DNA from: Opitutia bacterium
GTDB lineage: Bacteria > Verrucomicrobiota > Verrucomicrobiia > Opitutales > Opitutaceae
Length of the DNA: 64,000 bases
Assembly: GCA_016190985.1 (NCBI GenBank)
Contig: JACPPI010000027.1
Coordinates: 1-64,000 of the forward strand
Direction of reading: 5' to 3'
Positions 5,056 to 51,619 of the stretch are shown here, in pieces; the stretch's first letter is position 1, and every line of letters begins with the position of its first letter. The position numbers and the translations under genes were made by a program. The notes beneath the pieces were generated by a model, which worked only from the letters and a program-made list of their open reading frames with translations, searched no databases and was not told the origin of the DNA.

Positions 5056-5086
5056 CTGTAGCGGCGCTCTATGAGCGCCGCTACAG
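5056..5086. repeat. REP-like palindrome with GTAG at both ends
   Basis: Perfect 14-bp inverted repeat CTGTAGCGGCGCTC, 3-nt loop TAT, starting directly behind the TGA of the YhcH-like gene. Both arms carry the GTAG/CTAC tetranucleotide. There is no U-tract, so an intrinsic terminator is less likely than a REP-like element. Confidence 0.75.
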
Positions 5087-5105
5087 CGCCAAGCGCCCAA
5101 CGAGG

Positions 5106-5975
5106 ATGAACTACCGGCACCACTACCACGCGGGCAACTACGCCGATGTCCTCAAGCACGCGTTGCTGCTGCGGCTGATCCGCGCGATGCAGCGCAAGGC
5201 GAAGGGCTTTCTCTACCTCGACACCCACGCCGGCCGGGGCGGCTACGATCTCTCGGTGCCCTCGGTGCTGCCCGACGGCAAATCCCGCGCACCCGAGCAC
5301 CCCGCCGGCATCGGCCGCCTGTGGGGCGCGACCGGACTGCCGCCGGCGCTCGACGATTACCTGGCCCTGGTGCGGCGGTTCAACGACCGGAACGGCTCGG
5401 TCGGCGAGGAGCTGAAATTCTATCCCGGCTCGCCCTGGCTCGCGAAGCTGCTGTTGCGGCCGCAGGACCGCATGGCGCTGTGCGAGCTGCGGCCGGACGA
5501 CGCCGAGGCGCTGGACTTCGAGTTCGCCAGGGAGTCACGCGTGACCGTGCAGGCCATGGATGGTTACACCGGATTGAAAGCCCTGCTGCCGCCGCCGGAG
5601 AAGCGCGCGCTGGTGCTGATCGACCCGCCGTTCGAGACGAAAAGGGAATTTGCCGACATCGTCCGTGGATTGCGCGACGCCTTGAAACGCCTGCCCGGCG
5701 CGGTGATCGCGGTGTGGTATCCGATCACGGAGCGGGCGCGGACGGACGAGTTTCACCACGCCCTGCTCGAGCTGGCGACGCCGGCACTGTATGCCGAGCT
5801 GAACATCGCCGGCGAGAACTCCACGCTGCGGATGAAAGGCTGCGGTCTGCTCATCCTGAATCCGCCGTGGCAGATCGACCGGGAGATCCGGGCCTTGCTG
5901 CCGGTGTTGCGCGAGAAACTGGGGGTGGACGCCGGGGCCGGCACGGCCTGCGACTGGCTGGTGCCGGACAAGTGA
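5106..5975 (+). CDS. rlmJ: 23S rRNA (adenine(2030)-N(6))-methyltransferase RlmJ
   Basis: 289 residues, the usual RlmJ length. It methylates N6 of A2030 in 23S rRNA using S-adenosylmethionine. The N-terminal signature NYRHHYHAGNYADVLKHALL is highly typical, followed by FLYLDTHAGRGGYDL (SAM-binding motif I) and the catalytic motif IV DPPF at residues 173-176 (DPPY in E. coli). The C-terminal LNPPW motif is also present. ATG at 5106 is supported by the conserved N-terminus. It stands as a single gene flanked by hairpin repeats on both sides. Confidence 0.94.
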   Translation: MNYRHHYHAGNYADVLKHALLLRLIRAMQRKAKGFLYLDTHAGRGGYDLSVPSVLPDGKSRAPEHPAGIGRLWGATGLPPALDDYLALVRRFNDRNGSVGEELKFYPGSPWLAKLLLRPQDRMALCELRPDDAEALDFEFARESRVTVQAMDGYTGLKALLPPPEKRALVLIDPPFETKREFADIVRGLRDALKRLPGAVIAVWYPITERARTDEFHHALLELATPALYAELNIAGENSTLRMKGCGLLILNPPWQIDREIRALLPVLREKLGVDAGAGTACDWLVPDK

Positions 5976-5983
5976 GGTTGGTG

Positions 5984-6031
5984 GTCGCCGATTTCCATAT
6001 CGGCGACTGGCGTCGGTGTGGAAACCGACGC
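5984..6031. repeat. Two tandem perfect hairpins behind rlmJ
   Basis: Stem 1: GTCGCCGAT / ATCGGCGAC with 6-nt loop (5984-6007). Stem 2: GCGTCGGT / ACCGACGC with 6-nt loop (6010-6031). They begin 8 bp after the rlmJ stop and are framed by GGTGG...CCACC. No T-run follows. This may be a dispersed repeat pair or an attenuator-like 3' end. Confidence 0.65.
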
Positions 6032-6046
6032 CCACCCTGTGATGTC

Positions 6047-6250
6047 TCAGCCTTGGGGCGGGCGCCGCGTGAGGCGCGCGGCCGTGAACGGCAAAGGATC
6101 GAATGCGACGCGCGGGTTGGGCAGCACGGGCGCCTTGAAGACGGGCTGGCCCCACAGGATGTCGCGATTGAGGTTCTGCCGCCCGGCCGCAACCGCCTTG
6201 GCGGCCGGGTGGGCCGCGCACGAGGGGGATTGGTGCGGGAAGTAGGTCAT
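6047..6250 (-). CDS. Hypothetical small protein (67 aa)
   Basis: Small minus-strand ORF downstream of hsp20. Sequence starts MTYFPHQSPSCAAHPAAKAV and contains DILWGQPVFKAPVLPNP, which has the look of a real protein rather than a GC-rich shadow. No family is recognised and no Shine-Dalgarno is visible. It could equally be chance. Confidence 0.3.
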   Translation of the reverse strand: MTYFPHQSPSCAAHPAAKAVAAGRQNLNRDILWGQPVFKAPVLPNPRVAFDPLPFTAARLTRRPPQG

Positions 6251-6314
6251 GGTGTTTTGGGTGCGGCTGGGTCGGAGCCGTCACCATGAGAACCCCGCAG
6301 CCGCCGGAATGTTC

Positions 6315-6348
6315 CAGAAAAATGAACCCCCCGGGCGCGCCTCCGGGG
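6315..6348 (-). terminator. Probable intrinsic terminator of hsp20
   Basis: Reading the minus strand behind the hsp20 stop: CCCCGG stem, GC-rich loop, CCGGGG, then GGTTCATTTTT. GC-rich hairpin followed by a T-rich tract in the correct orientation, about 40 nt after the stop codon. Confidence 0.5.
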
Positions 6349-6384
6349 AATTCCGCAGGCCCACCCGGGTTGTTGATCCGGAGT

Positions 6385-6780
6385 TCAGGCCACCTGGCGC
6401 TGCCGGCCCGGCGGGGCGGCGGTGGCCGGCCGGGTCTTCGGCAACACGATGGTGAGCACGCCCCCGGTGATCGAGGCCTGCAAGGACTCATAGTCGAAAC
6501 CGAGCCCCAGCCGCAGGCTGAGCCGGTAGTCGCGCTGCACGTTTTCCAGGTGCAGGGTCTGCCAGTTGGCGCGGAGGTGGTGCGCCTTGCGGGCGGTCAC
6601 CACGAGGTCGGGGCCGCGCGTGGTGATGTCCACGCCGCTCGCGTCCACGCCCGGGACGTAGAGCGTGAGCCGGAGGGCCTGCGGCAGGTCCGTGCAGTCA
6701 TAGGGCGGCGTGCGGTGCTCCGGCCGGGCTTCCGCGCGGGGAAAACGGCTGTCATGGGGGCGTTGGATGAGGGCATGCAT
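6385..6780 (-). CDS. Hsp20/alpha-crystallin family small heat-shock protein
   Basis: 131 residues. ATP-independent holdase chaperone binding unfolding cytoplasmic proteins. The alpha-crystallin domain spans about residues 33-120: LRLTLYVPGVDASGVDITTR at its start, DLVVTARK, LSLRLGLGFDYESLQASITG, then the conserved GVLTIVLPK. The C-terminal I-x-I-type tail is poorly recognisable (RPATAAPPGRQ). ATG at 6780 has a good Shine-Dalgarno (AAAGGAACC). It is a single-gene unit with a probable terminator behind it. Confidence 0.88.
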   Translation of the reverse strand: MHALIQRPHDSRFPRAEARPEHRTPPYDCTDLPQALRLTLYVPGVDASGVDITTRGPDLVVTARKAHHLRANWQTLHLENVQRDYRLSLRLGLGFDYESLQASITGGVLTIVLPKTRPATAAPPGRQRQVA

Positions 6781-7113
6781 GGTGGTTCCTTTCTCGTCGG
6801 GTGATACCGCCGGGACTCCTGGGAGCTGAAAGAAAAACCGGGTTACGGTTTGATCAGCGGAGGCAGTCCTGGCCGGTGGGTCGCTTCAGCCAATTGGCGG
6901 CGCAACGGCACATCGGGGCGCCACCCATTGGCAGACCGGCCTTCGTAAGCGAAGTGTCGGCCTGCAAGCGGCGCTGATGTTGGATGACGTGCGTCATGGG
7001 CTGAAGAGGAGGACCAGAAAACACGTTCTAATCCGTCCGCCAAGCTAAAACCCCAACTATGACGCGGCCGCCGGGTGCTTGCGCGGGCGGCGCCGGGCCG
7101 GTAACCTTGGACC
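6781..7113. other. Intergenic region without recognised gene
   Basis: 333 bp between the divergent hsp20 and MazG-like genes. It should hold both promoters, but I cannot point to convincing -35/-10 pairs. The 170-aa minus ORF reaching in from 7355 is an antisense shadow. Small dyads such as TTCGTAAGCGAA and ATGACGTGCGTCAT are present; no function is evident. Confidence 0.4.
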
Positions 7114-7488
7114 ATGAAACCAATGACCGATGCGAAGACGACGGTTGCGGAGCTGCGGGAGCGCGTGCTGGCCTTTGTGCGCGAGCGCGACTGGGAGCAG
7201 TTCCACTCCCCGAAAAACCTGAGCATGGCGCTGGCCGCCGAGTCGGGCGAGCTGATGGAGCACTTCCTCTGGGCCGAATCGAAGGCCTCGCGGGAGGTCG
7301 CGCGCGACCCGAAGAAACGCCCGGCCATCGAGGCCGAGATCGCCGACGTGGTCATCTACGCCCTCGAGTTCGCCAACATGTGCGGCATCGACCTCGCCGC
7401 CGCCATCGAGGCCAAGATGAAGGCCAACGCCAAAAAATATCCGGTCGAGAAATCGCGCGGCCGCTCGGAGAAATACACGGAACTCTGA
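7114..7488 (+). CDS. MazG-like nucleotide pyrophosphohydrolase (dCTPP1/RS21-C6 type)
   Basis: 124-residue all-alpha NTP pyrophosphatase that would hydrolyse non-canonical or excess (d)NTPs to monophosphate and pyrophosphate (house-cleaning). Typical motif order: RDWEQFHSPKNLSMALAAE, then the metal-binding ESGELMEHFLW (ExxE) and EIADVVIYALEFANMCGID (ExxD), ending in NAKKYPVEKSRG. Length matches the short single-domain family rather than full MazG. ATG 7114 is followed after two codons by a second ATG that could also serve. A REP-like element begins 4 nt behind the stop. Confidence 0.9.
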   Translation: MKPMTDAKTTVAELRERVLAFVRERDWEQFHSPKNLSMALAAESGELMEHFLWAESKASREVARDPKKRPAIEAEIADVVIYALEFANMCGIDLAAAIEAKMKANAKKYPVEKSRGRSEKYTEL

Positions 7489-7491
7489 CGA

Positions 7492-7622
7492 TGCAGGGCG
7501 GGGTCGCTGCCCCCGCCGATGGGAGCAACGGGAGTCTCCAGATAATTTGTAATCTACTATATTACAAATTATCGGGAGGATCACGCCAACGCGCGAAGCG
7601 GGATCAGCGATCCCGCCCTGCA
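7492..7622. repeat. Composite REP pair with nested TTTGTAAT palindrome
   Basis: 18-bp imperfect terminal inverted repeats (TGCAGGGCGGGGTCGCTG at 7492-7509; inverse at 7605-7622, one mismatch) bracket a 13-bp perfect palindrome GATAATTTGTAAT...ATTACAAATTATC at 7541-7573. The left unit head (GCAG) lies 4 nt behind the MazG-like stop and the right unit head 2 nt behind the FmdB-like stop. The inner AT-rich palindrome recurs at 15144. Confidence 0.75.
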
Positions 7623-7623
7623 A

Positions 7624-7875
7624 TCAGGCCGCCGGGATGCGCGGGCCGCTGTGGCAGGCGCAGCCGGGGGAGCAGGGGGCGGCGGGAACGGCCGCGGGGG
7701 ACTTCGCGCCGGCCTTCTCGATCAGGCCGTAGCCCCCGGTGATGACGCGCCGCACCGGCTCGCCGGTGTCGGGGTGCCGTTCCAGCGGGGCGTCCTTCAT
7801 GCTCTGCATCACCTCGAAACGCCGCGGCACCTCGCCCGGCTGTCGGGGGATGGTTTCATAGACGTAGGTGGCCAT
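7624..7875 (-). CDS. FmdB-like protein lacking the zinc-ribbon cysteines
   Basis: 83 residues from ATG at 7875 (MATYVYETIPRQPGEVP); the longer track start is not needed. The opening TYVYE and the segment RRFEVMQSMKDAPLERHPDTGEPVRRVITGGYGL align with FmdB-family regulators, in which an N-terminal zinc ribbon is formed by two CxxC pairs. Here those cysteines are absent, and the only cysteines are in the C-terminal tail CSPGCACHSGP. Function unknown; it may be a metal-binding or degenerate relative. It lies 47 bp downstream of gluQ on the same strand, so co-transcription is likely. Confidence 0.75.
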   Translation of the reverse strand: MATYVYETIPRQPGEVPRRFEVMQSMKDAPLERHPDTGEPVRRVITGGYGLIEKAGAKSPAAVPAAPCSPGCACHSGPRIPAA

Positions 7876-7922
7876 GAGGGGTAGGGAGAGAAAGGGAAAA
7901 GGCTCGAAAATCAAGCCGCCCG

Positions 7923-8762: not shown

Positions 8763-8857
8763 TGGACACGAATAGACACGAATGAGGACGGAACCATCCG
8801 AAAGTTCACCGGAGGCCGGGATTGAATTCGTGCGCCTTCGTGTTCATTCGTGGTTCC
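8755..8857. repeat. Dispersed AACCACGAATGGACACGAAT-type element
   Basis: Left arm ACCACCAATGGACACGAATA and right arm TTCGTGTTCATTCGTGGTT form an imperfect long inverted repeat occupying the whole gap between gluQ and the LOG-like gene. This AT-richer repeat type is foreign to the local base composition. Confidence 0.6.
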
Positions 8858-8861
8858 AGAC

Positions 8862-9443: not shown

Positions 9444-9491
9444 GCGCGGTTGGGTTTGTCATCTAATGGATGACAAACCTACCGGGCGGAC

Positions 9492-12248
9492 TCAGCGGTA
9501 GAGCCGGATCAGATCCTCGCTGCGCACCCAGCCGGACTGGCCGCCGGCGAAGGCGAGCTTGGTCCAGCCAAGGAAGGTCTTCTCGGCGACGGCGATGGAG
9601 CCGGCGGACAACGGGGACATCTTCTGGGTCGTGTCGGCCTCGGTCGGGATGCTGCGCAGGGTGGACGCCTTCCACACGAACACCGCCTCCGGATGGGCGA
9701 GCGATCCGTAAGTGCGCAGGCTGAGCGTGGCGGCGGCGGCCAGCAGGATGGCGAGCAGGATGGTGGTGAGCGCCGCCGGCCGGGCCCAGCCGCCAATGCG
9801 GCCGTAGCCTCGCAACAGCAGGACGACGAGCGCGGCGGCGATGAGGAGGGCGGCGCCAACGAGCGCGATCTGCCATTCGCCCGGTGCCGCCCAGCGCGCC
9901 AAGGCATGACGGCCTTCGCCGCGGGAAAATTCCACCAGTTCGGGCGGCGCCAGGCCGGAGCGTTGCAGGCCGAGGGCGAGGTCCCAGCGGGTCGCGGCGG
10001 CGCGGGCGTTGAGCAGGAAGCCGCCGGTCCAGTGCGCGGTGGCCTCGGCCCAGCGGTCCTGCTGCGCGAGGGCGAGGCCGAGGTTGTGGCGGGCGGTCCA
10101 GTCGTTTGGCGCTGATCTGATTTCTGTCCGCCAGGTTTGCTCCGCTGCCGGAAAATCGCCGCGTTTGTAAGCCTCGCCTGCCGGTTCCGCACCAAAGGCG
10201 GAAGGCTGAAGGGCTGAAAAGCTGAAAAGAACAAGCAGCCAGGCTGCGACCCGGATGGTCTGGTTCAGCCCTTCAGTCTTCAGTTCTTCAGCCCTTTCCA
10301 GGAAGGGGAACAGGTTGCGCCCGGCGAAGAGCGAGAACGGCGGCCAGCCGGGCACGCGCACGGCCTGCAGCGCGCCCTCGGCGCGGTTCATCCAGTCGGC
10401 GGGCAGCTGGGCTTCGCGGCTGTGCAGGGCGCGGTCGGCCTCGGACCAGAGCCGGGCCCAGGCGGAGGCGGCGTCCTGAGTGCGGCGGCCCACGCAGGCA
10501 TGGACCAGCGGTGTGCCTGGCGCGGCGTGGGGGATCTGCCAAAGTCTGGCCGTCTCCGACTGCCAGACTTTGAGTTGAGGGTTGAGAGTTGAGGGTTGAG
10601 AGCCGGAAACGCGGAGTTCGGCGAGAGCTTTGGCCAGGCGGGCGCGGGCCTCGCGGCGCAGGCGTTGCGGGTCGCGTTCGCGCGAACGGAGCGCGGCGAG
10701 GGTCAGCCAGAGGAGCAGAGGACAGAGGACGGAGGACAGGAGGCAGGCCCAGACGAGGGCAGGTGTCTTGAGCGGCACGAAGCCCTGGGCGGATTCCGCG
10801 ATGGGATCGCGCGGCAGGTTCTCGGGCGGCACGGGCGCGACGGCGGTGGGCAGGACTGGCGCGTTTGGTGTCGAGCTGGCCGGGGTGCCGATGGAGAACT
10901 GCACGGGCGCGCCGGAACCGGCCGGAGCCTGCACGGGCGCCGAGGTGCCGGTGATGGTCACAGTGACGGGCTCGCTGGCGACGGTCTTGTAGCTGCCGCT
11001 CTTCGGGTCGAAGTAGGTGAAGCGCACCGGGGCGAGCCGGTAGGTGCCGGGCTTGGTGGGCACAAGCACGACGTCTTCGGTGAGCGTGCCCTCGAAGAGC
11101 GCGTTGTCCTTCATCGTGCGCCTGGATTTCGGCTGCACGACCTGGAAATCGTTGGACACCTCGCGCTCGGGCAGGCCGGCGATGTCGGGCCAGTTGCCGG
11201 TGCCGGCCAGCTCGATCGTCCAGGTGACGGGTTCGCCGACGGCGGCGGTGACGGGCACGACCTTGGAGGTGAAGCTGAACTCGCCGACCGCGCCGCTAAA
11301 CACCGGCGGGGCGGGCGGCAGCGGCTTGATCGTCAATCCGAGCGGGCTGGATTCGATCGCGCGCTGCTCGACCGTGGGCTGGGAGAAAAGCCCGAAGCCG
11401 GAGGTGCCGACCATGAGGTTCACCATCTGCGTGGCGGGCTTGACCGTGTAGTTGCCGGGCGCCTTGACGTAGGCGCGGGTGGACTGCTGGAGGGAGACAA
11501 AGCGTTCGCCGCGCTGGAGGGTCTCGTTCAGCTCGGGCTTGCTCCAGTCCTCGGTGACGAGCGGCGCGGCGGGCCACTCGACGTTGGTGGCGATGGAATG
11601 GTAATAGCGCCGGACGATGTTGAGATTGTAGCCGACCGGGAAAACCTCGCCGGCCCAGAACGCGGCGCGGGGCGCGGTGAGTTTCGCCGCGGCGACATCG
11701 TTCACGGCGAGGCCGGAGCTGCCGACGGTGGCGTCGCCCACGGTGAACGTGGCGGCCTTGACCGTCAGCGGGCCCTTGTCGGTTTTGATCGCAAAGGCGG
11801 GGATTGTGATCTTATTCCGCGTCCCGGGGCGGACGCGGAAAGTGAGGGTGTAAGTCTTGGTTAGGCCATTTGAGGTGCCGGGGCCGAACTCAACATTGGT
11901 GCTGGCCGACGATGAGGGTGGGCCAAGGAATGACAGTCCTGGGACCGTCGGCAGCTTTTCGTTTTCGTCGGGCTCGCAGTTCTCAAAGACCAGCGATAAT
12001 TCGGAGACCTGGTTGAAGCCCAACTGGCCGCCGGGCGGATCCCAGCGCACGGCCTGGGCGCGACTCAGGGTGGGCACCAGCAGGGCGAGGAGCAGCAGGG
12101 CCCAGGCAGGGGCTTGCCGGCAGGCGGGCCTGTGGGAGCGAGCTTGCTCGCGACTGGTTCGTGTCGCGAGCAAGCTCGCTCCCACAAAACGGATCATCGC
12201 CTGCAAGCAGGCTCCTACAAAAGAAAAGACGTTGCGGGACATGGTCAT
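9492..12248 (-). CDS. batD: BatD-like protein with TPR and SH3-like C-terminus
   Basis: 918 residues, last gene of the MoxR-DUF58-BatA-BatB-BatD operon (aerotolerance/envelope stress type). ATG at 12248 overlaps the batB stop (TGATG). Mature part starts near AQAVRWDPPGGQ with BatD-type immunoglobulin-like repeats (VRPGTRNKITIPAFAI), a central membrane segment near LLSSVLCPLLLWLTLAAL, TPR-like YKRGDFPAAEQTW...NLGLALAQQ, two further membrane helices, and a C-terminal SH3-like GWTKLAFAGGQSGWV. Oddities: three REP units inserted between the start codon and the hydrophobic core of the signal sequence, plus repeat-derived stretches inside (LLSSVLC, SQPSTLNPQL, AEELKTEGLN, FSFSALQPSAFG). Periplasmic/inner-membrane location inferred. 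Confidence 0.85.
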   Translation of the reverse strand: MTMSRNVFSFVGACLQAMIRFVGASLLATRTSREQARSHRPACRQAPAWALLLLALLVPTLSRAQAVRWDPPGGQLGFNQVSELSLVFENCEPDENEKLPTVPGLSFLGPPSSSASTNVEFGPGTSNGLTKTYTLTFRVRPGTRNKITIPAFAIKTDKGPLTVKAATFTVGDATVGSSGLAVNDVAAAKLTAPRAAFWAGEVFPVGYNLNIVRRYYHSIATNVEWPAAPLVTEDWSKPELNETLQRGERFVSLQQSTRAYVKAPGNYTVKPATQMVNLMVGTSGFGLFSQPTVEQRAIESSPLGLTIKPLPPAPPVFSGAVGEFSFTSKVVPVTAAVGEPVTWTIELAGTGNWPDIAGLPEREVSNDFQVVQPKSRRTMKDNALFEGTLTEDVVLVPTKPGTYRLAPVRFTYFDPKSGSYKTVASEPVTVTITGTSAPVQAPAGSGAPVQFSIGTPASSTPNAPVLPTAVAPVPPENLPRDPIAESAQGFVPLKTPALVWACLLSSVLCPLLLWLTLAALRSRERDPQRLRREARARLAKALAELRVSGSQPSTLNPQLKVWQSETARLWQIPHAAPGTPLVHACVGRRTQDAASAWARLWSEADRALHSREAQLPADWMNRAEGALQAVRVPGWPPFSLFAGRNLFPFLERAEELKTEGLNQTIRVAAWLLVLFSFSALQPSAFGAEPAGEAYKRGDFPAAEQTWRTEIRSAPNDWTARHNLGLALAQQDRWAEATAHWTGGFLLNARAAATRWDLALGLQRSGLAPPELVEFSRGEGRHALARWAAPGEWQIALVGAALLIAAALVVLLLRGYGRIGGWARPAALTTILLAILLAAAATLSLRTYGSLAHPEAVFVWKASTLRSIPTEADTTQKMSPLSAGSIAVAEKTFLGWTKLAFAGGQSGWVRSEDLIRLYR
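10197..10300. repeat. GGCTGAAGGGCTGAAAAGC-type inverted repeat pair inside batD
   Basis: Left copy GGCTGAAGGGCTGAAAAGC near 10207-10226 and an inverted copy CAGCCCTTCAGTCTTCAG near 10266-10283. They encode parts of BatD (FSFSALQPSAFG and AEELKTEGLN). The same family occurs at 55933 and 56025. Confidence 0.55.
10570..10604. repeat. Degenerate GAGTTGAGGGTTGA tandem inside batD
   Basis: About 34 bp of alternating GAGTTGAGG/GTTGAGA units, read on the minus strand as SQPSTLNPQL in BatD. A low-complexity insertion in an otherwise GC-rich gene. Confidence 0.55.
12132..12218. repeat. Array of three REP units in the 5' end of batD
   Basis: Unit 1 (+, 12132-12153) and unit 2 (-, 12164-12185) are identical 22-mers beginning GTGGGAGCGAGCTTGCTC. 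Unit 3 (-, 12196-12218) begins GTAGGAGCCTGCTTGCAGGC. Each is a GTGG/GTAG head followed by a hairpin with a TT or TTG loop. They closely resemble REP sequences known from Pseudomonas. They are translated as VGASLLATRTSREQARSH in BatD. Confidence 0.85.
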
Positions 12249-15129: not shown

Positions 15130-15143
15130 GAGCGGGTGGGGCT

Positions 15144-15172
15144 AAATTTGTAATCTATTATATTACAAATTT
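15144..15172. repeat. AT-rich palindrome AAATTTGTAAT
   Basis: 11-bp perfect arms around loop CTATTAT, 15 bp upstream of the batA start. Same core (TTTGTAATCTAnTATATTAC) as the palindrome at 7541-7573. Could be a protein-binding dyad or a dispersed element; the second copy lies between two converging genes, which argues for a repeat. Confidence 0.6.
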
Positions 15173-15230
15173 CGGGGGACAGGTGGGGCGGCTTGGCCTC
15201 AAGACGCTTTTGTTCGACGACGACATACAA

Positions 15231-15255
15231 GCGCGCTGGGGTCAGCGCGCTCCAC
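15231..15255. repeat. REP-like unit (GTGG head, minus orientation)
   Basis: Minus strand reads GTGGAGCGCGCTGACCCCAG followed by CGCGC: head GTGG, stem GCGCGCTG/CAGCGCGC, loop ACCC. The head faces the DUF58 stop codon 29 nt away. Related copies at 29919 and 40421. Confidence 0.65.
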
Positions 15256-17966: not shown

Positions 17967-18431
17967 TCAGACATGCAACTCGTGCAGCCGGCCTTTCCAT
18001 GGCCAGTCGAGCGGCGTGGGACAAAGGCCCTGGCGCACGGGATTCAGGGTGACGTAATCCCGTTTTTCCCGGTAGTTATCCGCGGAACGCAGGAAGCGGT
18101 CGAAATAGTCCCGTTGCCAGAGGGGAGGATTGAGCCCAAGGATGGGCGCGAGAGTGCGGCTGCCGATCGATTTCCATGTGCCCACCCACCTCGCCAGCGT
18201 TTTGGCTTCGGCTGAAGGTTGGGCAAAAAGATGAAGATGATCAGGCATCAAAAAGAAATCTCCCACGAACCAACCGTCGCAGCCCGGTGAGCGTTGCCAG
18301 ATCTTGGTCAAGGCATCCAGTGCCACTCGGCCGGCAAGCCAGGGGCGACGTTCATTCGTCACCACGGTCAGGAAAATCACCGGTTGACGGGAATATGACC
18401 GCAGGTGTGGCAGGTGGCGGTGGTCGGGCAT
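17967..18431 (-). CDS. REP-associated tyrosine transposase (RAYT, Y1_Tnp/IS200-like)
   Basis: 154 residues from ATG 18431 (MPDHRHLPHLRSYSRQPVIF). The HUH metal-binding motif is seen as MPDHLHLF near residues 62-69, and the catalytic Tyr region as NYREKRDYVTLNPVRQGL near 119-136. FLTVVTNERRPWLAG at the N-terminus is typical of this group. RAYTs are single-copy, domesticated relatives of IS200 transposases that nick and join single-stranded REP hairpins at a conserved tetranucleotide. No partner TnpB and no IS ends are seen. Short GC hairpins flank the gene. Many REP-like units lie elsewhere in the window and may be its substrates. Confidence 0.9.
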   Translation of the reverse strand: MPDHRHLPHLRSYSRQPVIFLTVVTNERRPWLAGRVALDALTKIWQRSPGCDGWFVGDFFLMPDHLHLFAQPSAEAKTLARWVGTWKSIGSRTLAPILGLNPPLWQRDYFDRFLRSADNYREKRDYVTLNPVRQGLCPTPLDWPWKGRLHELHV

Positions 18432-21009: not shown

Positions 21010-21061
21010 TGGAGGGCTGGCCTCCCGGCCGGCCGTGGTCGGTCAAGAGACCGACCCTCCA
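21010..21061. repeat. REP pair with GGAG heads
   Basis: Left unit GGAGGGCTGGCCTCCCGGCC (+) and right unit on the minus strand GGAGGGTCGGTCTCTTGACC, whose stem GGTCGGTC/GACCGACC is perfect. The right head is 1 nt behind the stop codon of the TIGR03067 gene. Confidence 0.7.
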
Positions 21062-21409
21062 TTATTTCCGCTGGTAATTGGCGAGGTAAAGCTGCTCGCC
21101 GCCGCGGGTGTCGAATTTCTTCGGGCGGACGCCACCGAGGCCGTAACAGATGGAGAGCGTGTCGCCGGCGAACTTGTAGATGCCGGGGATGGACTTGCCG
21201 GCGTTGGGTCCGATCATGCCGGCGAGCGTCAGGTGACCGTCGGCCTCGACGGTGTAGGTGCCCTGGTCGGCGGTGACGCCGCCGAAGCGGACGGCGTATT
21301 CGCCGCCGACAAGTTCGATCTCCATCTTATCGAGCATCATCTTCGGCGCCTCCTCACCGTCCATCTCGGCATAGACAGGCTGCCAGCGGCCATCGAGAGA
21401 GGGGCTCAT
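21062..21409 (-). CDS. TIGR03067-domain protein
   Basis: 115 residues, a single lipocalin-like TIGR03067 domain as found mainly in Planctomycetes and Verrucomicrobia. Typical features: SLDGRWQPVYAEMDGEEAP at the start, KMEIELVGGEYAVRFGG in the middle, and GIYKFAGDTLSICYGLGGVRPKKF near the end. No signal peptide is visible, so cytoplasmic location is likely. Molecular function of the family is unknown. It starts 3 nt behind rmuC, so the two are probably co-transcribed. Confidence 0.8.
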   Translation of the reverse strand: MSPSLDGRWQPVYAEMDGEEAPKMMLDKMEIELVGGEYAVRFGGVTADQGTYTVEADGHLTLAGMIGPNAGKSIPGIYKFAGDTLSICYGLGGVRPKKFDTRGGEQLYLANYQRK

Positions 21410-22755: not shown

Positions 22756-22777
22756 TCGCGAGCAAGCCCGCTCCCAC
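22756..22777 (-). repeat. Single REP unit, Pseudomonas-like (GTGGGAGCGGGCTTGC)
   Basis: Minus strand begins GTGGGAGCGGGCTTGCTCGC: GTGG head plus a CGAGC-type stem. It lies 3 nt behind the stop codon of the pseudokinase gene with the head facing that stop. One substitution away from the units in batD. Confidence 0.85.
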
Positions 22778-22780
22778 AAC

Positions 22781-24676
22781 TCAGGCGCTGGTGCGCAGCG
22801 GGCCGAAGGCGATCTGGATGTCGGTGCCCTTCATGCCGGGGCCGGCCTGGAGGATGCCGCCGTGGAGGCGGATAATTTCGCGGGCCAGGAAGACGGAGAG
22901 GCGGCCCTCGTTGGGGGTCGAGCCCGGGGAGGGCAGGGGCAGGGTGCCGTCGAGCTCGAGGCGCTTGCCCTCGATGGTGATGGCGGCGGTGCGCTGGTCG
23001 CCGGCGCCGGCGCTGCGCAGATTGAGGATGAGGCCCGCGGTGCCCTCGTCGGGCCGGTTGGCGGCGATGGCGTCAAAGATGGCGCCGAAGGCAAAGCGCA
23101 GGAGGTGGGGGTCGACCCGGAAAACCACGGATTCCTCGGCGAACCGGGTGGTGACGCCCCGCTCGGTGGCGACCTCGCTGAGGATGGCCTGGACGTCGGC
23201 CTCCTCGGGGGCGGGCTGGGCGATCTCGCCCAGCAGCATCGAGTGCGCGGCGAGGCGTTCGAGCTTCTCGACCTCGGCGGCGAGCGCGACGCCCGAGGCG
23301 AGAGTGGCGGCGCCGGGCGCCGGGGTGGCCGGCAGGGTCGCGGCCAAGGGCAAGGGATGCACCGTTCCGGCCTGCTGGCCGGCCGGTGTTAGTCCGGGCC
23401 GGTCGCCCGGCAAACGGGCGAGCAGCTGGGCGAAGGTGACGAGCGAGACGAGCGGGTTGGACAGCTCGTGGCTGAGGGTGAGGCCGAGGTTGCGGAACAG
23501 GACGCGGCGGTGCTGCTCGGCTTCGGCGCGGATGCGCTCGATCTCGGGGGCGGCCTCCTCCCAGCGCACCCAGACGCCGTCGATCTCGGGCACGGGGCCG
23601 GCGGCCACGCGGTAACGGTGGGGCGGGCGGGCATGCTGCTCGACCACGCGCTGCTCGTGCAGGGCCTCGTTGGCGATGGCGCGGACCTCGACGGGCAGGT
23701 CGGCGGCGGCGATCTCGGCGCGCGCCAGCACGCGGGAGCCGGGCAGGTATTTGGCGCGGAGCGCCGCGCGGGCCTCGATGCGCGCCAACTCCTCGAGCTG
23801 GGCGGAGCGTTCCAGACAGCGTTCGAGGAGGCGGCCATGGAGCACGGCGCGGAACTTGTCGCTGTCGCGATAGGCGGCGCCGTCGGCGCGCGGACCGAGG
23901 GCCATCCAGCCGAGCAGCTGGCCGGAGGCGTGCAGCGGGATCAGGAGCCGGGCGCCCCAGCTGTGCAGCTGCTGGCGGATGGGGGCGTCGAGCGCGGGGT
24001 CGTCGGGGCCGGCCCATTGCGAGGTGTCGAGCGCGGCGGGGTGGTCCTCCAGCCAGAGGGCGAGCGGGTGGCCGGCATCGCAGCGGTGGACCTCGTCGTC
24101 GGAGACAAACGCGTCGAGCTGGCGGAAGAAAAAGAGGACCCGCCCGGACTTCAGGATGTAGCGGCCGGCGCGGCGGAACTCGTCGAGCAGGCGGGTGCGG
24201 TCGCCGAGGTGGGTCAGGGCGCTCTCCAGGAAATCCCAGGACTCGACCGGCTCGGGGGCGGGGGTGGCGGGCGATTCGCGGGGGAACGGCGGTTCGCTGC
24301 GGCGGGTGCGCTCGCGCGTGGTGTGCAGCTGGGAATTCTTGTCGGCGATCTCCTCCATCAGGCCCACGGTCTCGGCGAGGCGGGCGCGGCTGTCGTCGTA
24401 GCTGAGGAAAAGCCGGGCGGCGCGGTTCTGCCGGGCTTGTTCAAAAGGGATGCTGTGGGGCTGGCCGACGAGGATGACGAGGGTGCCGGCGCCGCAGGCG
24501 AGGCGGGCGCGCGGGTCGTTGATGTCGGCGACCCAGACGCGCGCGCCGGGGCGCAGGAGATCGCGGGCCAGGTCGGCGGGCCGGGCGAAGACGGCGGGCT
24601 CGCGCGGGTGGAGCTGGCTCTTCCACGCGGCTTCGAGACCGGGATCGTTGGTGGTCAGGATGAGGGTGGCGGGCAT
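22781..24676 (-). CDS. Histidine-kinase-like protein with degenerate ATP-binding domain (pseudokinase)
   Basis: 631 residues, soluble. N-terminal receiver-like domain (about 1-115, VWVADIND at the strand that would carry the phospho-acceptor), a short linker, a GAF-like domain (about 150-300), then a dimerisation helix with an intact H-box (LSHELSNPLVSLVTF, about 415). The following catalytic domain lacks recognisable N, G1 and G2 boxes: the N-box position reads FGAIFDAIAANR and the G2 position EGRLSVFLAREIIRLHGG. It may therefore receive phosphate on its His rather than bind ATP. The start overlaps the upstream kinase gene by 22 nt, showing tight coupling. Family call is good; the pseudokinase status is my reading. 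Confidence 0.75.
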   Translation of the reverse strand: MPATLILTTNDPGLEAAWKSQLHPREPAVFARPADLARDLLRPGARVWVADINDPRARLACGAGTLVILVGQPHSIPFEQARQNRAARLFLSYDDSRARLAETVGLMEEIADKNSQLHTTRERTRRSEPPFPRESPATPAPEPVESWDFLESALTHLGDRTRLLDEFRRAGRYILKSGRVLFFFRQLDAFVSDDEVHRCDAGHPLALWLEDHPAALDTSQWAGPDDPALDAPIRQQLHSWGARLLIPLHASGQLLGWMALGPRADGAAYRDSDKFRAVLHGRLLERCLERSAQLEELARIEARAALRAKYLPGSRVLARAEIAAADLPVEVRAIANEALHEQRVVEQHARPPHRYRVAAGPVPEIDGVWVRWEEAAPEIERIRAEAEQHRRVLFRNLGLTLSHELSNPLVSLVTFAQLLARLPGDRPGLTPAGQQAGTVHPLPLAATLPATPAPGAATLASGVALAAEVEKLERLAAHSMLLGEIAQPAPEEADVQAILSEVATERGVTTRFAEESVVFRVDPHLLRFAFGAIFDAIAANRPDEGTAGLILNLRSAGAGDQRTAAITIEGKRLELDGTLPLPSPGSTPNEGRLSVFLAREIIRLHGGILQAGPGMKGTDIQIAFGPLRTSA

Positions 24677-32427: not shown

Positions 32428-33210
32428 ATGCCCAAGCCTGCTCGCGCGCTCACGTTGATCCTGAGCGCCATGCCGTCGGAGATCCGCCTGATCCAGGCGC
32501 ATCTCCGGCGACCGAAACCGGGCCGGCACGCAGGGTTGCCCTATGTCACCGGGGTGTTGCGCGGCCGGCGGGTGGTCACGGCCGTGACCGGCGTCGGAGT
32601 CACCAACGGCGCGATGGTCACGGCGCTGTTCGTGGAAAAATTCCGCCCAACCGAGGTGCTCGTCTCGGGCACGGGCTCACGCTTTAATCTGCGGCTCCGC
32701 ACCGGCGACACGGTCATTTCGACCAAAACGATCCACCACGCCGCCGGCAACCTGACGGACCAAGGCATGATCTACCGCAAGGTGCGCGGGCCGCTCGCCG
32801 GGCAGATGACCTCGTGGTATTACCGGCCCGATCCGCGGCTGCTGCGGCTCGCCCGCGCCGCCATCGTCGGCTACGCCGCCGCGCCCGTCAGGGTGGCTGG
32901 CCGGACCTATGTGCCGCGCGTGCTGACCGGTGTGGTCGCCGCCAGCGACCTCTTCGGCGTGTCCGACGCCAAGATCGCGGACATGAGAAAGAAACTGAAC
33001 CCGGACATCATGGAGATGGAAAGCGCCGCCATCGCGCAGGTCTGCACGCAGCTCGGCGCGCCGCATCTCGTTTTCCGCGCCGGGAGCAACCGCACGCAGT
33101 CCAATCCCGGCGGCGACTACCGCCAGCTCGGCCAGACCGCCGCCGCCGCCGCCGCGCGCTGGACGGTGTATTTCACCGGCTGCCTGGCGGCAGCCACAAA
33201 GGCTCGATGA
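32428..33210 (+). CDS. 5'-methylthioadenosine/S-adenosylhomocysteine nucleosidase family protein
   Basis: 260 residues from ATG 32428 (MPKPARALTLILSAMPSEI). Nucleoside phosphorylase fold: VTGVGVTNGAMVTALFVEKF, and the family signature DIMEMESAAIAQVCTQLGAPHLVFRAGSN, where MEMES contacts the ribose. It would cleave adenine from MTA/SAH or a related nucleoside. The motif around the usual catalytic Asp (FRAGSNRTQ) differs from FRxISDxA, so substrate preference or activity may differ. It is followed by a purine permease and adenosine deaminase, fitting a purine-salvage group. Upstream residues in the track come from repeat DNA. Confidence 0.8.
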   Translation: MPKPARALTLILSAMPSEIRLIQAHLRRPKPGRHAGLPYVTGVLRGRRVVTAVTGVGVTNGAMVTALFVEKFRPTEVLVSGTGSRFNLRLRTGDTVISTKTIHHAAGNLTDQGMIYRKVRGPLAGQMTSWYYRPDPRLLRLARAAIVGYAAAPVRVAGRTYVPRVLTGVVAASDLFGVSDAKIADMRKKLNPDIMEMESAAIAQVCTQLGAPHLVFRAGSNRTQSNPGGDYRQLGQTAAAAAARWTVYFTGCLAAATKAR

Positions 33211-33236: not shown

Positions 33237-33322
33237 CCAATGTTCGTAATACGAACATCTGCCTTTGCGCCCAGTCGTATTTCGGGTGTCTTTTGGGCGA
33301 ATGTTCGTAATACGAACATTGG
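33237..33322. promoter_or_regulatory. Paired ATGTTCGTAATACGAACAT palindromes upstream of purine permease
   Basis: Two copies (33240-33258 and 33301-33319) of the dyad ATGTTCGT-AAT-ACGAACAT, each flanked outward by CCA/TGG, making one 86-bp inverted repeat 40 bp upstream of the permease ATG. ACGAACAT resembles half of the PurR box known from Bacillus (CCGAACAT). It could be an operator for purine control or another dispersed element; only comparison with other loci can tell. Confidence 0.5.
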
Positions 33323-40420: not shown

Positions 40421-40446
40421 AGCGCGTTGAGGTCAACGCGCTCCAC
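40421..40446 (-). repeat. REP unit 1 nt behind the pnp stop codon
   Basis: Minus strand: GTGGAGCGCGTTGACCTCAA followed by CGCGCT. GTGG head, stem AGCGCGTTGA/TCAACGCGCT, 2-nt loop. The head starts one base after the pnp TAA. Confidence 0.8.
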
Positions 40447-45930: not shown

Positions 45931-45941
45931 GTTACTGTGGT

Positions 45942-45998
45942 GTAGGGCGGGGTCGCTGACCCGCCAAGGTTGAGGCGGGATCAGCGATCCCGCCCTAC
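45942..45998. repeat. REP pair (two GTAG-head units, convergent)
   Basis: Left unit GTAGGGCGGGGTCGCTGACC (+, from 45942) and right unit in inverse orientation, GTAGGGCGGGATCGCTGATC on the minus strand (head 45998-45995). Each has a hairpin of 8-9 bp. The right head is 3 nt behind the oppC stop codon. Confidence 0.85.
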
Positions 45999-46001
45999 AG
46001 T

Positions 46002-47082: not shown

Positions 47083-47087
47083 GATCC

Positions 47088-48005: not shown

Positions 48006-48008
48006 GGG

Positions 48009-48065
48009 AAAATCAGAGGGCAGAGGTCAGAGAGCAGAGGACAGAAGAGCTAGCCAGACGGAAAA
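48009..48065. repeat. AGAGGACAG-type tract with AGACGGAAAA word
   Basis: CAGAGGGCAGAGGTCAGAGA, GCAGAGGACAGAAGAG, then AGCCAGACGGAAAA, in the gap between the binding protein and oppB. Same two-part structure as at 45884. Confidence 0.6.
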
Positions 48066-48092
48066 TCAGCGGCCCGGTCTCCCTGAGCCCGA

Positions 48093-49721
48093 TTATTTTG
48101 TTTCCAGCCACATGCCCTGATAAGGATGGATATTAAACAGGTTGGGGAATCGGCCCTGCACCGCCGGGTGCACGAGGTGCCGGCTGGTTTCATGAAACAG
48201 GGGAACGACCGGGGCGTCGCGCAGCAACACGGCCTCGGCTTCGCGATAGCGGCTGAGGCGGGCCGCTTCATCCAGGGTTTGTCCGGCAGACAAAGCGAGG
48301 CGGTCGTATTCCGGCCGGGCGTAGCCGGTGGTGTTCTGGCCGTTGTCGCCGAGATACAGGGTGAGGAAGGCGAAGGGGTCGGGATAATCGCCGAACCAGC
48401 TGGAGCGGCTGAGCTGATACTGCTTCCGGATCCGTTCCTGGTAGAAGACCTTGCCTTCCTTGAGGCTGATGGCGACGGGCACGCCGAGGTTTTTCCGCCA
48501 AAGCTGCTGCACGACTTCCGCGATCTCGCGGTGAAGCTGGCTGGTGTTGGTGGCCAGCTCGACCGCCGGGAAACCCCGGCCCTCGGGGTAACCGGCGGCG
48601 GCCAGCAACCGGCGGGCCTCGGCGGGATCGAATCGCAGCGCGGCCTCATCGGGGCCGGCGTAGCCGCCGACCGGCGGCACAAACGACCGCGCCGGCCGGA
48701 TGCCGCTGCCCACCTGGCTGGCCACGATGCTTTCCCGGTCGAGCGCGAGCGAAAAGGCCCGGCGCACGCGCACGTCGTCAAACGGCGGGCGGGTGACGTT
48801 GAAGACGTAGGCGTAGGTGGCGAAGATCGGGGCGACAACGAGCGGACCGCGCTGCTGCGCCGCGTATTCGCGCAGTTTGCTGCCCGGGACATTTTCCGTG
48901 ATATGCAGCTGGCCGGAGCGGAAGGCGCGCTCCTCGGTGTCGGCGTTCTCGATCGGGTGAAAATGGATTTCGTTCAGCCGGACCCGGGCCGCGTCCCAGT
49001 AGCGCGGGTTCTTTTTCACGACGATGACCTGGCCGGGTTTCCACTCCGCGAGGGTGTAGGGCCCGTTGCCGACCAGCCGGCCGGGCCTGGACCAGTCGGC
49101 GTAGGGCCGGTCGACCCCGCCGTATTTTTCCAGGGTGCCGCGATGCAGCGGATACCAGGCCCAGTTGCCCAGCAGGAAAAGGAAGCTGGGAGCGGGATGG
49201 GTCAGCTCAATGCGCAGCGTGTGGTCGTCCAAGGCCCGGATCCCCACCGTCGAGATGTCCGGCACGGCGGCCGCCGTGAACTCCTTGGCTCCGCGCACGT
49301 CGTCGAAGTAATAGCGGAATGGCGAGCCCAGCCCGGGCGAGAGGATGCGCCGGGCGCTGAAGACGAAATCATGGGCGGTGACCGCGTCGCCGTTGGACCA
49401 CTTCGCGTTGGCGCGCAGGTGAAAAGTGTAGGCCAGCCCGTCGGGCGAGACTTCCCAGCGCTCGGCCACGCCGGGGACGGGATGCAGATCCGACGGGTCG
49501 TAGCCAACCAAGCCCTCGCTCAGCGCCATGAAGACGTTGAAGTGGGACTGAAATTGCAACAGGTGCGGATCGAGGTCCTGCGGCTCCGTCGCGATCCCCT
49601 GATGGAGGATCTGCGCGCGGTTGCCCACCTCGACCATCGTCTCGCGCTTGCCGCAGCCCGTGAAAACCAGCGAACAGATGATGAAGAACGGAAGACAAAG
49701 CTTCGGGCGCGGGGCGGACAC
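48093..49721 (-). CDS. oppA: Oligopeptide-binding lipoprotein (OppA paralogue)
   Basis: 542 residues from GTG 49721; signal peptide LCLPFFIICSLVFTGC with lipobox FTGC. Family 5 signatures: IATEPQDLDPHLLQ, ALSEGLVGYDP, GLAYTFHLRANAKWSNGDAV, NGPYTLAEWKPGQVIVVKKN, ERAFRSGQLHITENVPG, DYPDPFAFLTLYL. It would present peptides to OppBC encoded directly downstream; this is the copy most likely to be the primary partner. The paralogue in front of it is separated by the M28 peptidase gene. REP units flank the upstream gap. Confidence 0.92.
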   Translation of the reverse strand: MSAPRPKLCLPFFIICSLVFTGCGKRETMVEVGNRAQILHQGIATEPQDLDPHLLQFQSHFNVFMALSEGLVGYDPSDLHPVPGVAERWEVSPDGLAYTFHLRANAKWSNGDAVTAHDFVFSARRILSPGLGSPFRYYFDDVRGAKEFTAAAVPDISTVGIRALDDHTLRIELTHPAPSFLFLLGNWAWYPLHRGTLEKYGGVDRPYADWSRPGRLVGNGPYTLAEWKPGQVIVVKKNPRYWDAARVRLNEIHFHPIENADTEERAFRSGQLHITENVPGSKLREYAAQQRGPLVVAPIFATYAYVFNVTRPPFDDVRVRRAFSLALDRESIVASQVGSGIRPARSFVPPVGGYAGPDEAALRFDPAEARRLLAAAGYPEGRGFPAVELATNTSQLHREIAEVVQQLWRKNLGVPVAISLKEGKVFYQERIRKQYQLSRSSWFGDYPDPFAFLTLYLGDNGQNTTGYARPEYDRLALSAGQTLDEAARLSRYREAEAVLLRDAPVVPLFHETSRHLVHPAVQGRFPNLFNIHPYQGMWLETK

Positions 49722-49778
49722 AGGAATACGAAAGCTCCCGGTGAGCCGCGTGGCAAAAGAAAACCCGGGCGTGGGGTG

Positions 49779-49855
49779 GTGGAGGCGGGACCATCAGTCC
49801 CGCGGGTTGTCAGATTCGTGGCCATGCCTCGCGGGGCTGATGGCCCCGCCTCCAC
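49779..49855. repeat. REP pair with GTGG heads
   Basis: Left unit GTGGAGGCGGGACCATCAGT (+, 49779-49804) and right unit on the minus strand GTGGAGGCGGGGCCATCAGC (49830-49855): stems GCGGGA/TCCCGC and GCGGGG/CCCCGC show compensating changes. The right head is 8 nt behind the M28 peptidase stop codon. Confidence 0.8.
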
Positions 49856-49863
49856 CCAGAGGA

Positions 49864-51510
49864 TCACTTCTTCATCATCGCGTCGCGCCTGGGCTTGAAC
49901 TCGTTGCCGGGTTTCCACTCGGGCCAGGTGTCCCCGTTGGCGATGCGCCAGCCGACCTGGAGGAGGAACACGGCGTCCTGCGCCGCGCCCTCGAAGGTCC
50001 AGTCGGGCTGCACCTCGTCGGTGACCTTGTGGTAGCGGTTGGCGATGTAGTCGTTGACGTTCTTGTCGGCGAAATCCGCGGGTTGGCCGATGAAGGCGCG
50101 GCCGTTCTTCGGGTAGTAGGAGGGCACGCCGACCTTCGCGAACTCGAAGTGGTCGCTGCGGTAGTAGGAGCCGCGCTCGGGGTTGGCCTCGGGCTTCATG
50201 TCGCGGCCCTGCGCGGCGGCGACGGCGATGCCGATGTCGTCGATCGTCGAGGCGCCGTAGCCGACGGTGGCCATGTCGCTCGTCGGGCCGAACTGGTTGG
50301 CGCCGTCCATGTTGATGTTCGCAAGCGTCTTGGTCAGCGGGTAGAGCGGGTCCTGCGCGTAGTAGTGCGAGCCCAGCAGGCCCTTCTCCTCGGCGGTGAC
50401 GGAGAGGAAGAGGATGCTGCGCTTCGGGCGCTGGGCGGCGGGCAGCGAGGTGTAGGCGCGGGCCAGTTCGAGGAGCACGCCGCAACCGGCGGCGTTGTCA
50501 GCCGCGCCGTTGAAGATCTGGTCGCCCGGCAGGCGGTTGTCCCGGCCAAGGTGATCCCAGTGCGCGGTGTAGATGACGTATTCGTCCTTCAGCTTCGGAT
50601 CGGTGCCGGGGAGGAGCGCGGCGACGTTCTTCGAGGCGACGTTGCGCAGGACGCTGTCGACCGTGAACGACGCCTTGGCGCCGAGCGCGATCGGGGCGAA
50701 GTCGCGGCGCCCCGCGGCGGCCTTGGCGCGGTCGTAGTCCTGACCGGCGGCGGTGAAGAGCCGGCGCGTGGCGTCGAGCGTGAGCCAGCCCTCCATCGCG
50801 ACGTGACCCGCGTTCCTGTCGGGCACGCTGATCTCGAAATTCTCGCGGCTGCGGCTGCCGACGATGACGCCGAACGGATAGGCGGCGGGTCCGGTCTCGT
50901 GGACGATGAGGCAGGCGGCGGCGCCCTTGGCGGCGGCAATCTCGTATTTGTAGGTCCAGCGGCCGTAGTAGGTCATGGCCTTGCCGCCAAAAATTTTTGG
51001 GTCGAGCTGGCCGTCCGCCCCGACGACCGGTGGGTCGTTGATGAGCATCACGACCGTCTTGCCGCGGACATCGACGCTCTTGTAGTCGTCCCAGCCGAAT
51101 TCCGGCGCGACGATGCCGTAGCCGACAAAGACCACGTCGGTGTCCTTGGCCTCGACGTGCGGCGTGACCCGGCTGGTCGGGCCGACGAATTCGTTGATGT
51201 TTTCCATCGCGAGCACCTTGCCGTCGAGCGTGAAGGAAAGCGTGGGCGTAGAGGTGATGCCGACGAGGGGCACGTTCTGGATGTAGGTGCCGTCGGGGTT
51301 GCCCGGCTGCAGGCCGAGCTTCTTGAACTCCGCAATCAGGTAGGCGACGGTCTTGTCCTCGCCGGGCGTGCCGGGGGAGCGGCCCTCGAACTCGTCGGAG
51401 GCGAGCACCTTGACGTGCGCGAGGATGTTCGCGGAAGAGATTTCCGGTTTCGGGTCGGCGGCGGCCAGGACCGTCGCGCCGAGCAAGCAAACGAACAGGG
51501 GTGTTTTCAT
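49864..51510 (-). CDS. M28-family zinc aminopeptidase with PA domain
   Basis: 548 residues from ATG 51510 with a signal peptide (KTPLFVCLLGATVLAAADPK). PA-like insert about 120-290 (FVGYGIVAPEFGWDDYKSVD, GAAACLIVHETGP), then the M28 core: first zinc His in TAHWDHLG, bridging Asp in NGAADNAAGCG, catalytic Glu pair in TAEEKGLLGS, further ligands Asp in NINMDG and His in SDHFEF. It releases N-terminal amino acids from peptides in the periplasm or outside. Encoded among oligopeptide-binding proteins, it fits extracellular peptide use. Stop followed by a REP unit. Confidence 0.9.
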   Translation of the reverse strand: MKTPLFVCLLGATVLAAADPKPEISSANILAHVKVLASDEFEGRSPGTPGEDKTVAYLIAEFKKLGLQPGNPDGTYIQNVPLVGITSTPTLSFTLDGKVLAMENINEFVGPTSRVTPHVEAKDTDVVFVGYGIVAPEFGWDDYKSVDVRGKTVVMLINDPPVVGADGQLDPKIFGGKAMTYYGRWTYKYEIAAAKGAAACLIVHETGPAAYPFGVIVGSRSRENFEISVPDRNAGHVAMEGWLTLDATRRLFTAAGQDYDRAKAAAGRRDFAPIALGAKASFTVDSVLRNVASKNVAALLPGTDPKLKDEYVIYTAHWDHLGRDNRLPGDQIFNGAADNAAGCGVLLELARAYTSLPAAQRPKRSILFLSVTAEEKGLLGSHYYAQDPLYPLTKTLANINMDGANQFGPTSDMATVGYGASTIDDIGIAVAAAQGRDMKPEANPERGSYYRSDHFEFAKVGVPSYYPKNGRAFIGQPADFADKNVNDYIANRYHKVTDEVQPDWTFEGAAQDAVFLLQVGWRIANGDTWPEWKPGNEFKPRRDAMMKK

Positions 51511-51568
51511 AGGGGGAGGGGCGAGATGCTGCGAAACGCGCGGGCCGTGGCGAGCGCGGAGTTGCCAG

Positions 51569-51619
51569 GCAGGGCGCACCAGCCGGTGCGCCGCGGCGGA
51601 GCGGGCCGCTCCGCCCTAC
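51569..51619. repeat. REP pair; right unit supplies a stop codon
   Basis: Left unit GCAGGGCGCACCAGCCGGTG (+, 51569-51592; stem GGCGCACC/GGTGCGCC). Right unit minus, GTAGGGCGGAGCGGGCCGCT-type (51595-51619; stem GGCGGAGCG/CGCTCCGCC). The TAG stop codon of the adjacent binding-protein gene (51618-51616) is part of this unit's GTAG head. Confidence 0.85.

What the first reader, a model, noticed from the sequence alone, without database searches (positions are those of the whole stretch)
5056..51619. REP-like hairpins sit head-first immediately behind stop codons
Nine units with a GTAG, GTGG, GGAG or GCAG head plus hairpin start 0-8 nt after a stop codon, always with the head facing the stop. Distances: YhcH-like 2 nt, MazG-like 4, FmdB-like 2, pseudokinase 3, TIGR03067 1, pnp 1, oppC 3, M28 peptidase 8, and one binding-protein gene whose TAG is itself part of the GTAG head. 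Two more (DUF58, batB) lie 29 nt behind a stop. The stem sequences differ between units while the head and orientation are kept. RAYT enzymes are known to recognise a GTAG-type tetranucleotide at the hairpin base, so this suggests targeted insertion next to terminators of translation, or selection for a role at mRNA 3' ends.
Basis: partly seen in the sequence, partly recalled or inferred. Interest (0 to 1): 0.82.

Follow-up and report, generated by a model that had tools for sequence, protein, structure and literature searches.

The report
Mobile DNA hairpins at gene ends
The short hairpins behind stop codons in this bacterium are ordinary mobile REP elements that usually travel as back-to-back pairs; they gather at the ends of genes, mostly because insertion does least harm there, and not because stop codons are generally targeted.

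Summary
The units are real. In a 1.66 Mb sample (56%) of this 2.95 Mb Opitutaceae genome, intergenic hairpins carry a GTAG/GTGG/GCAG/GGAG head far more often than hairpins in genes (20% vs 3.4% of hairpin ends). They are REPs: half of the elements are head-out inverted pairs (REPINs), and the genome holds RAYT transposases, two of them flanked by their own REP family.

'Always head-first' mostly reflects this pair structure. Both ends of a pair are heads, and single units in tandem gaps face the stop about as often as not (21:19). Stop proximity exceeds a proper null only moderately: 46 of 97 stop-facing heads lie within 10 nt versus 28 expected. The excess lies mainly in tandem gaps, where insertions near the next start are depleted. 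The largest family, P1 (72 copies, intact RAYT), shows none (4/27 vs 3.4), so RAYT mobility as such does not aim at stops.

One detail stays unexplained. Where the GTAG head supplies the stop, its TAG falls on exactly the orthologues' stop codon in 8 of 9 gene families.

GTAG repeats in Opitutus terrae, their 3'-end bias and TAG-as-stop were already published (PMC3733652). Verdict: a new member of a known kind.

The parts
5058..5084 (.). REP unit GTAG...CTAC, palindromic including both heads; 2 nt (CT) behind the YhcH TGA
   Evidence: empty in relative G011, present in G013
5981..6035 (.). REPIN (GTGG units 5981+ and 6035-) behind RlmJ TGA, 5 nt
7493..7517 (+). REP unit GCAG, 4 nt behind MazG-like TGA
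7596..7621 (-). REP unit GCAG, 2 nt behind FmdB-like TGA
   Evidence: absent in G013 and G011
9454..9482 (-). REP unit GTAG, 9 nt behind BatD TGA
12131..12186 (.). P1-family REPIN TGTGGGAGCGAGCTTGCTCGCGA...; not close to a stop (head 62 nt behind the BatB stop)
15230..15255 (-). REP unit family A GTGG, 29 nt behind DUF58 TGA
   Evidence: absent in G011, G013, G017
17967..18425 (-). RAYT gene (REP-associated tyrosine transposase), HUH motif MPDHLHLF and Y..LNPV
   Evidence: NF047646 80.7 bits, cut-off 80
21011..21060 (.). REPIN GGAG (21011+ / 21060-), head 1 nt behind the TAA of 21062-21409
22756..22778 (-). P1-family unit TGTGGGAGCGGGCTTGCTCGCGA, GTGG 3 nt behind the stop of 22781-24676
33240..33262 (-). 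GCAG-headed hairpin, tail towards the stop at 33210 (29 nt)
40421..40446 (-). REP unit family A GTGG, 1 nt behind pnp TAA, upstream of the pnp intrinsic terminator
45942..45998 (.). REPIN GTAG (45942+ / 45998-), 3 nt behind oppC TGA
49781..49853 (.). REPIN family D GGAG (49781+ / 49853-), 8-10 nt behind M28 TGA
51569..51619 (.). REPIN (GCAG 51569+ / GTAG 51619-); the GTAG supplies the TAG stop of the SBP gene 51616-53052

Best explanation
These are REP elements, mostly as REPINs (two REPs in inverted, head-out orientation), spread by RAYT (TnpA-REP) enzymes of which this genome has several. New copies land anywhere, and most that disrupt genes or the promoter/ribosome-binding region of a downstream gene are lost, so survivors collect in convergent gaps and at the stop-side edge of tandem gaps. 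Because both ends of a REPIN are heads, whichever end abuts a stop shows the head first; single units are mostly decayed pairs. When a GTAG head lands on the stop codon itself, its TAG can serve as the new stop without changing protein length. Shown here: the elements, pairing, RAYTs with cognate flanks, gap-type bias, depletion near starts, moderate stop proximity in families A, B and D and its absence in P1. Inferred: mobilisation by RAYT, decay of singles from pairs, and selective loss as the cause of the bias.
For: Head tetranucleotides emerge without being sought: GTAG, GTGG, GCAG and GGAG are among the commonest at intergenic hairpin ends, together 20.2% vs 3.4% in CDS. 48/100 elements are head-out pairs and head-in pairs are almost absent. 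RAYT C5:~0.2-0.7 kb is flanked head-out by family D, and RAYT C30:~79.4-79.9 kb by family P1; three RAYTs pass NF047646, and the C5 RAYT also matches E. coli TnpA-REP 4er8. Density per 10 kb of gap is 13.6 convergent, 5.6 tandem, 2.8 divergent. Ends facing starts are depleted within 10 nt (6/75 vs 12.8). The single-unit null overstates the effect: at element level 46/97 vs 27.6 overall, convergent 21/53 vs 18.3. P1, with 72 copies, patchy in the genus and not found outside it, shows no stop proximity. The same gene end holds different REP families or none in relatives (pnp; oppC, M28, SBP).
Against: In tandem gaps the excess survives removal of a 40-80 nt zone before the start (21/34 vs 11.3, P 8e-5; 14/24 vs 8.1, P 0.003; 10/18 vs 6.0, P 0.02), so loss near starts may not explain all of it. 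Single heads lie within 10 nt of a stop more often than single tails (19/44 vs 4/42, Fisher P 0.0005); partner decay can explain this but was not demonstrated. The same-codon TAG result (8/9 families) is not predicted by random landing unless insertion needs a GT-like site.
Confidence: 0.62

Rival explanations
1. Selection for a role at mRNA 3' ends: hairpins within about 15 nt of a stop affect ribosome release or protect the mRNA from 3' exonucleases, and are kept for that.
For: REPs within 15 nt of a stop reportedly stall ribosomes and lower expression in E. coli (cited in PMC12306157). Stop-proximal excess remains in tandem gaps after excluding 40-80 nt before the start. The pnp unit sits between the stop and a conserved terminator in several relatives.
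Against: Stop-adjacent units have no longer stems than distant ones (8.2 vs 8.3 bp) and no T-run (1/43). Occupancy turns over between relatives. The largest family shows no stop preference.
Confidence: 0.18
2. Targeted insertion: some RAYTs insert at or just behind stop codons. In particular a GT-type site at nnG-Tnn stop junctions would be used so that the head's TAG replaces the stop in place.
For: TAG of the head lies on the orthologues' stop codon in 8 of 9 gene families, the ninth being one codon longer. Hairpins of these families starting directly after a stop are all GTAG, with none behind GTGA or GTAA although TGA is 68% of stops. Close unit-free orthologues often already have G before the stop (CGG-TGA, CGG-TAA, GGG-TAG). 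TnpA-REP heads can direct the choice of cleavage dinucleotide (PMC8266576).
Against: P1 shows no stop proximity. Stop codons near units match genome usage (33 TGA, 8 TAG, 7 TAA). Convergent gaps show only weak excess. The conserved bases 5' of heads are family-specific (G, T, CT) and not stop triplets. Flanks of available relatives are too diverged to read exact junctions.
Confidence: 0.15
3. The hairpins are intrinsic transcription terminators and not mobile elements.
For: They are GC-rich hairpins right behind genes.
Against: Only 1 of 43 stop-adjacent units is followed by four or more T. They recur as sequence families with heads, occur in pairs and flank RAYTs, and pnp has a separate terminator downstream.
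Confidence: 0.03

Closest known systems
GTAG-tagged REPs (Di Nocera et al. 2013, PMC3733652), notably family GTAG-20 of Opitutus terrae
   Same: Same family of bacteria (Opitutaceae), GT[A/G]G-type head plus 6-9 bp stem, several REP families in one genome, dimers with the GTAG ends outside, location mainly in unidirectional and convergent gaps, TAG of the head reported as the stop of flanking ORFs.
   Different: Different genus with its own stem families. Element-level distance tests, comparison between families and same-codon comparison with orthologues are added here; I saw no such tests in the passages of that paper that I read.
REPINs and RAYTs (Bertels and Rainey 2011, PMC3116915; Nunvar et al. 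2010, PMC2817692)
   Same: Inverted doublets as the unit, singlets as remnants, RAYT genes flanked by cognate REPs. P1 (TGTGGGAGCGAGCTTGCTCGCGA) closely resembles the Pseudomonas REPs listed in PMC2817692.
   Different: Bacterial host is a verrucomicrobium. PMC3116915 describes doublets as randomly distributed in extragenic space; that fits P1 here but not families A, B and D.
E. coli REPs within 15 nt of stop codons (earlier study cited in PMC12306157; from memory Liang, Rudd and Deutscher 2015)
   Same: Hairpins 1-20 nt behind stop codons of many genes.
   Different: No expression data here; proximity here is shown to depend on the family and the gap type.

Membership tests
REP / REPIN (GTAG type) | GT[A/G]G-type tetranucleotide at the foot of a short GC-rich palindrome | tested here: met
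   20.2% of intergenic hairpin ends vs 3.4% in CDS; window units listed
REP / REPIN (GTAG type) | Many copies, mostly extragenic, in sequence families | tested here: met
   135 intergenic of 216 detected units in 1.66 Mb; families A-F, X and P1
REP / REPIN (GTAG type) | Inverted, head-out doublets | tested here: met
   48 of 100 elements head-out pairs; P1: 12 of 31
REP / REPIN (GTAG type) | Cognate RAYT gene flanked by REPs of the same family | tested here: met
   Met for D (C5 RAYT) and P1 (C30 RAYT); not established for A, B, C, E
REP / REPIN (GTAG type) | Cleavage and strand transfer by the cognate RAYT | not testable with these tools
   Needs an in vitro assay as in PMC8266576
RAYT / TnpA-REP | Member of NF047646, HUH and catalytic Tyr motif | tested here: met
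   80.7, 95.9 and 85.5 bits against a cut-off of 80; IS200 model NF033573 below its cut-off
Stop-codon-targeted mobile element | Stop proximity in all families and gap types beyond random placement in the gap | tested here: not met
   P1 4/27 vs 3.4; convergent 21/53 vs 18.3, P 0.20
Intrinsic terminator | Hairpin followed by a T-run | tested here: not met
   1 of 43 stop-adjacent units
Translation-regulating REP as in E. coli | REP at most 15 nt from the stop and an effect on expression | tested here: inconclusive
   Distance met for many units; effect on expression not testable here

The most novel reading that the evidence does not exclude
Some RAYT-driven GTAG REP families insert site-specifically at the G-T junction between the last codon and the stop codon, so that the element's own GTAG head becomes the new stop codon and protein length does not change: a built-in way of landing harmlessly inside dense genomes.
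Probability: 0.2. Interest if true: 0.6.

Novelty: new member of a known kind. Interest (0 to 1): 0.33.

Why it matters
It shows that a striking 'head-first behind the stop' pattern can arise mostly from the pair architecture of REPINs and from where insertions are tolerated, and that the largest REP family in the same genome lacks it. That is a caution for reading REP position as regulation or targeting. The exact replacement of stop codons by the GTAG head is a concrete, testable detail of how REPs enter gene-dense genomes.

Tried and rejected
Single-unit null: rejected as misleading because pairs occupy most of a gap. Target motif containing a stop triplet: rejected, since conserved bases 5' of the head are family-specific (G in A, T in D, CT in E and X) and stop usage near units is average. 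Terminator role: rejected. Retained target as left flank (IS608-like): would leave GTGA or GTAA in front of hairpins at stops; none found. A first reading that SBP also kept the same codon was wrong; it is one codon longer. BatD and LOG in G011/G013 look like the same-codon case but their units are composite, so they were not counted. A first form of the start-exclusion null was biased and was replaced by a conditional one. My hairpin search needs a loop of 3 or more and so missed family P1, which was then tested by sequence. Gene models are from a home-made caller, so starts are uncertain and stops are reliable.
Full report
What was checked. The window is contig C26:1-64000 of a 2.95 Mb, 34-contig genome. 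Its near relatives are named Lacunisphaera sp., Opitutus sp. and Opitutaceae in public records. Genes were called with a home-made codon model; stops are reliable, starts less so.

The units are real. Without assuming a head, the tetranucleotides in front of intergenic hairpins are led by GTAG and GTGG, with GCAG and GGAG also among the commonest: together 20.2% of ends against 3.4% for hairpins in genes. batB is not: the nearest head is 62 nt behind its stop. Two further stop-near units (RlmJ, BatD) and several outward-pointing partners were overlooked.

What they are. They fall into several families: A GTGG-A[AG]CG..., B G[TC]AG-GGC..., C, D GGAG-GCGGG..., E GTAG-CGGCGG..., F, and P1 TGTGGGAGCGAGCTTGCTCGCGA. 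Half of the elements are head-out inverted pairs, 48 of 100; head-in pairs are almost absent. The genome has seven PF01797 hits. Three proteins pass NCBI's RAYT model: the window gene 17967-18425, one on C5 and one on C30. The C5 RAYT is flanked by family D and the C30 RAYT by P1, both in the inverted arrangement expected of a RAYT with its REPs. The elements are therefore REPs and REPINs.

Is stop proximity more than chance? Treating each unit alone, 36 of 108 heads lie within -4..10 nt of a stop against 10 expected, and only 3 tails do. This overstates the case, since a pair fills most of its gap. Placing whole elements at random in their own gap gives 46 of 97 head ends within 10 nt against 27.6 expected, and 58 of 129 against 34.7 when G013 is added. 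In tandem gaps it is 25 of 44 against 9.3; excluding 40, 60 or 80 nt before the next start leaves 21/34 vs 11.3, 14/24 vs 8.1 and 10/18 vs 6.0. In convergent gaps it is 21/53 against 17-18 (P 0.09-0.20). Ends facing starts are depleted, 6/75 against 12.8.

Orientation. A head-out pair always shows a head to its neighbour. Among single units in tandem gaps the head faces the stop in 21 and the tail in 19. Single heads are nevertheless closer to stops than single tails (19/44 vs 4/42 within 10 nt, P 0.0005). Singles are thought to be decayed pairs (PMC3116915), whose lost partner would keep the tail at a distance; this was not shown directly here.

An internal control. P1 is the largest family: 72 exact matches in the genome, patchy in the genus, none in the other genera searched, none for the reversed control pattern. 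It has an intact cognate RAYT. Its copies show no stop proximity: 4 of 27 head ends within 10 nt against 3.4 expected, while families A, B and D do. RAYT-driven REPs thus do not in general target stops. Either the other families have been filtered by selection over a longer time, or their RAYTs differ; P1 units are only somewhat more alike than family A units (0.85 vs 0.81 mean identity over 22 nt), so the age argument is suggestive only.

Comparison with relatives. At the pnp stop, relatives carry a GTGG unit, a GTAG unit of another family, degenerate remnants or nothing, upstream of a conserved terminator. At oppC, relatives carry different families or nothing. YhcH, FmdB and DUF58 have empty counterparts. 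Unit-free gaps can be very short; the YhcH-RlmJ gap in G011 is about 20 nt, so any insertion there must be close to the stop.

The unexplained detail. In nine gene families where a GTAG head supplies the stop, the TAG lies on exactly the codon where unit-free orthologues stop in eight, and one codon later in the ninth. In the 964-aa family the relatives already stop with TAG, so it does not show the direction of change. Hairpins of these families that start directly after a stop are always behind GTAG, never GTGA or GTAA. This fits insertion at a G-T junction that regenerates TAG, but the right-hand junctions cannot be read at this divergence, so it remains a lead.

Known work. GTAG repeats in O. 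[quoted passage not shown] stop codon (TAG)' are published (PMC3733652). E. coli REPs within 15 nt of stops are reported to act on translation (cited in PMC12306157). The biochemistry of head-guided cleavage is known (PMC8266576). The finding is a new set of members of a known kind with a useful internal control.

Noticed in passing
window 12131-12186 and 22756-22778; whole genome: P1 REP family TGTGGGAGCG[AG]GCTTGCTCGCGA closely resembles Pseudomonas REPs, has 72 exact pattern matches here, is patchy in the genus (0 to about 70 copies) and not found in the other genera searched, with an intact cognate RAYT at C30:~79.4-79.9 kb; possible horizontal transfer or convergence of a RAYT-REP system.
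   Followed up: partly
window 17967-18425: RAYT gene in the window just above the NCBIfam cut-off, flanked by GGGG-headed imperfect hairpins whose palindrome is nearly single-copy in the genome: an orphan RAYT without a REP population.
   Followed up: partly
window 7531-7582 and 15136-15180; other contigs: AT-rich long-stem hairpins around TTTGTAATCTA..TATTACAAA (17 hits in 1.66 Mb), apparently another repeat family of unknown nature.
   Followed up: no
C5:18195, C2:36215, C8:104954, C10:162226, C15:8109: Palindrome GATGTCAACTATTAGTTGACATC-type, 12 copies in 1.66 Mb, several 4-12 nt behind stops, not headed by GTRG.
   Followed up: no
C30:70331-70858 and orthologues L325-L327: One gene end where own/G010, G013 and G004 carry units of three different REP families at -4, -4 and 1 nt from the stop.
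   Followed up: partly
C10:9557, C10:50282, C17:4836: GTGG units overlap gene ends so that the gene's stop lies 14 nt after the head starts, apparently the TGA in the hairpin loop (GCGTTGACC).
   Followed up: no
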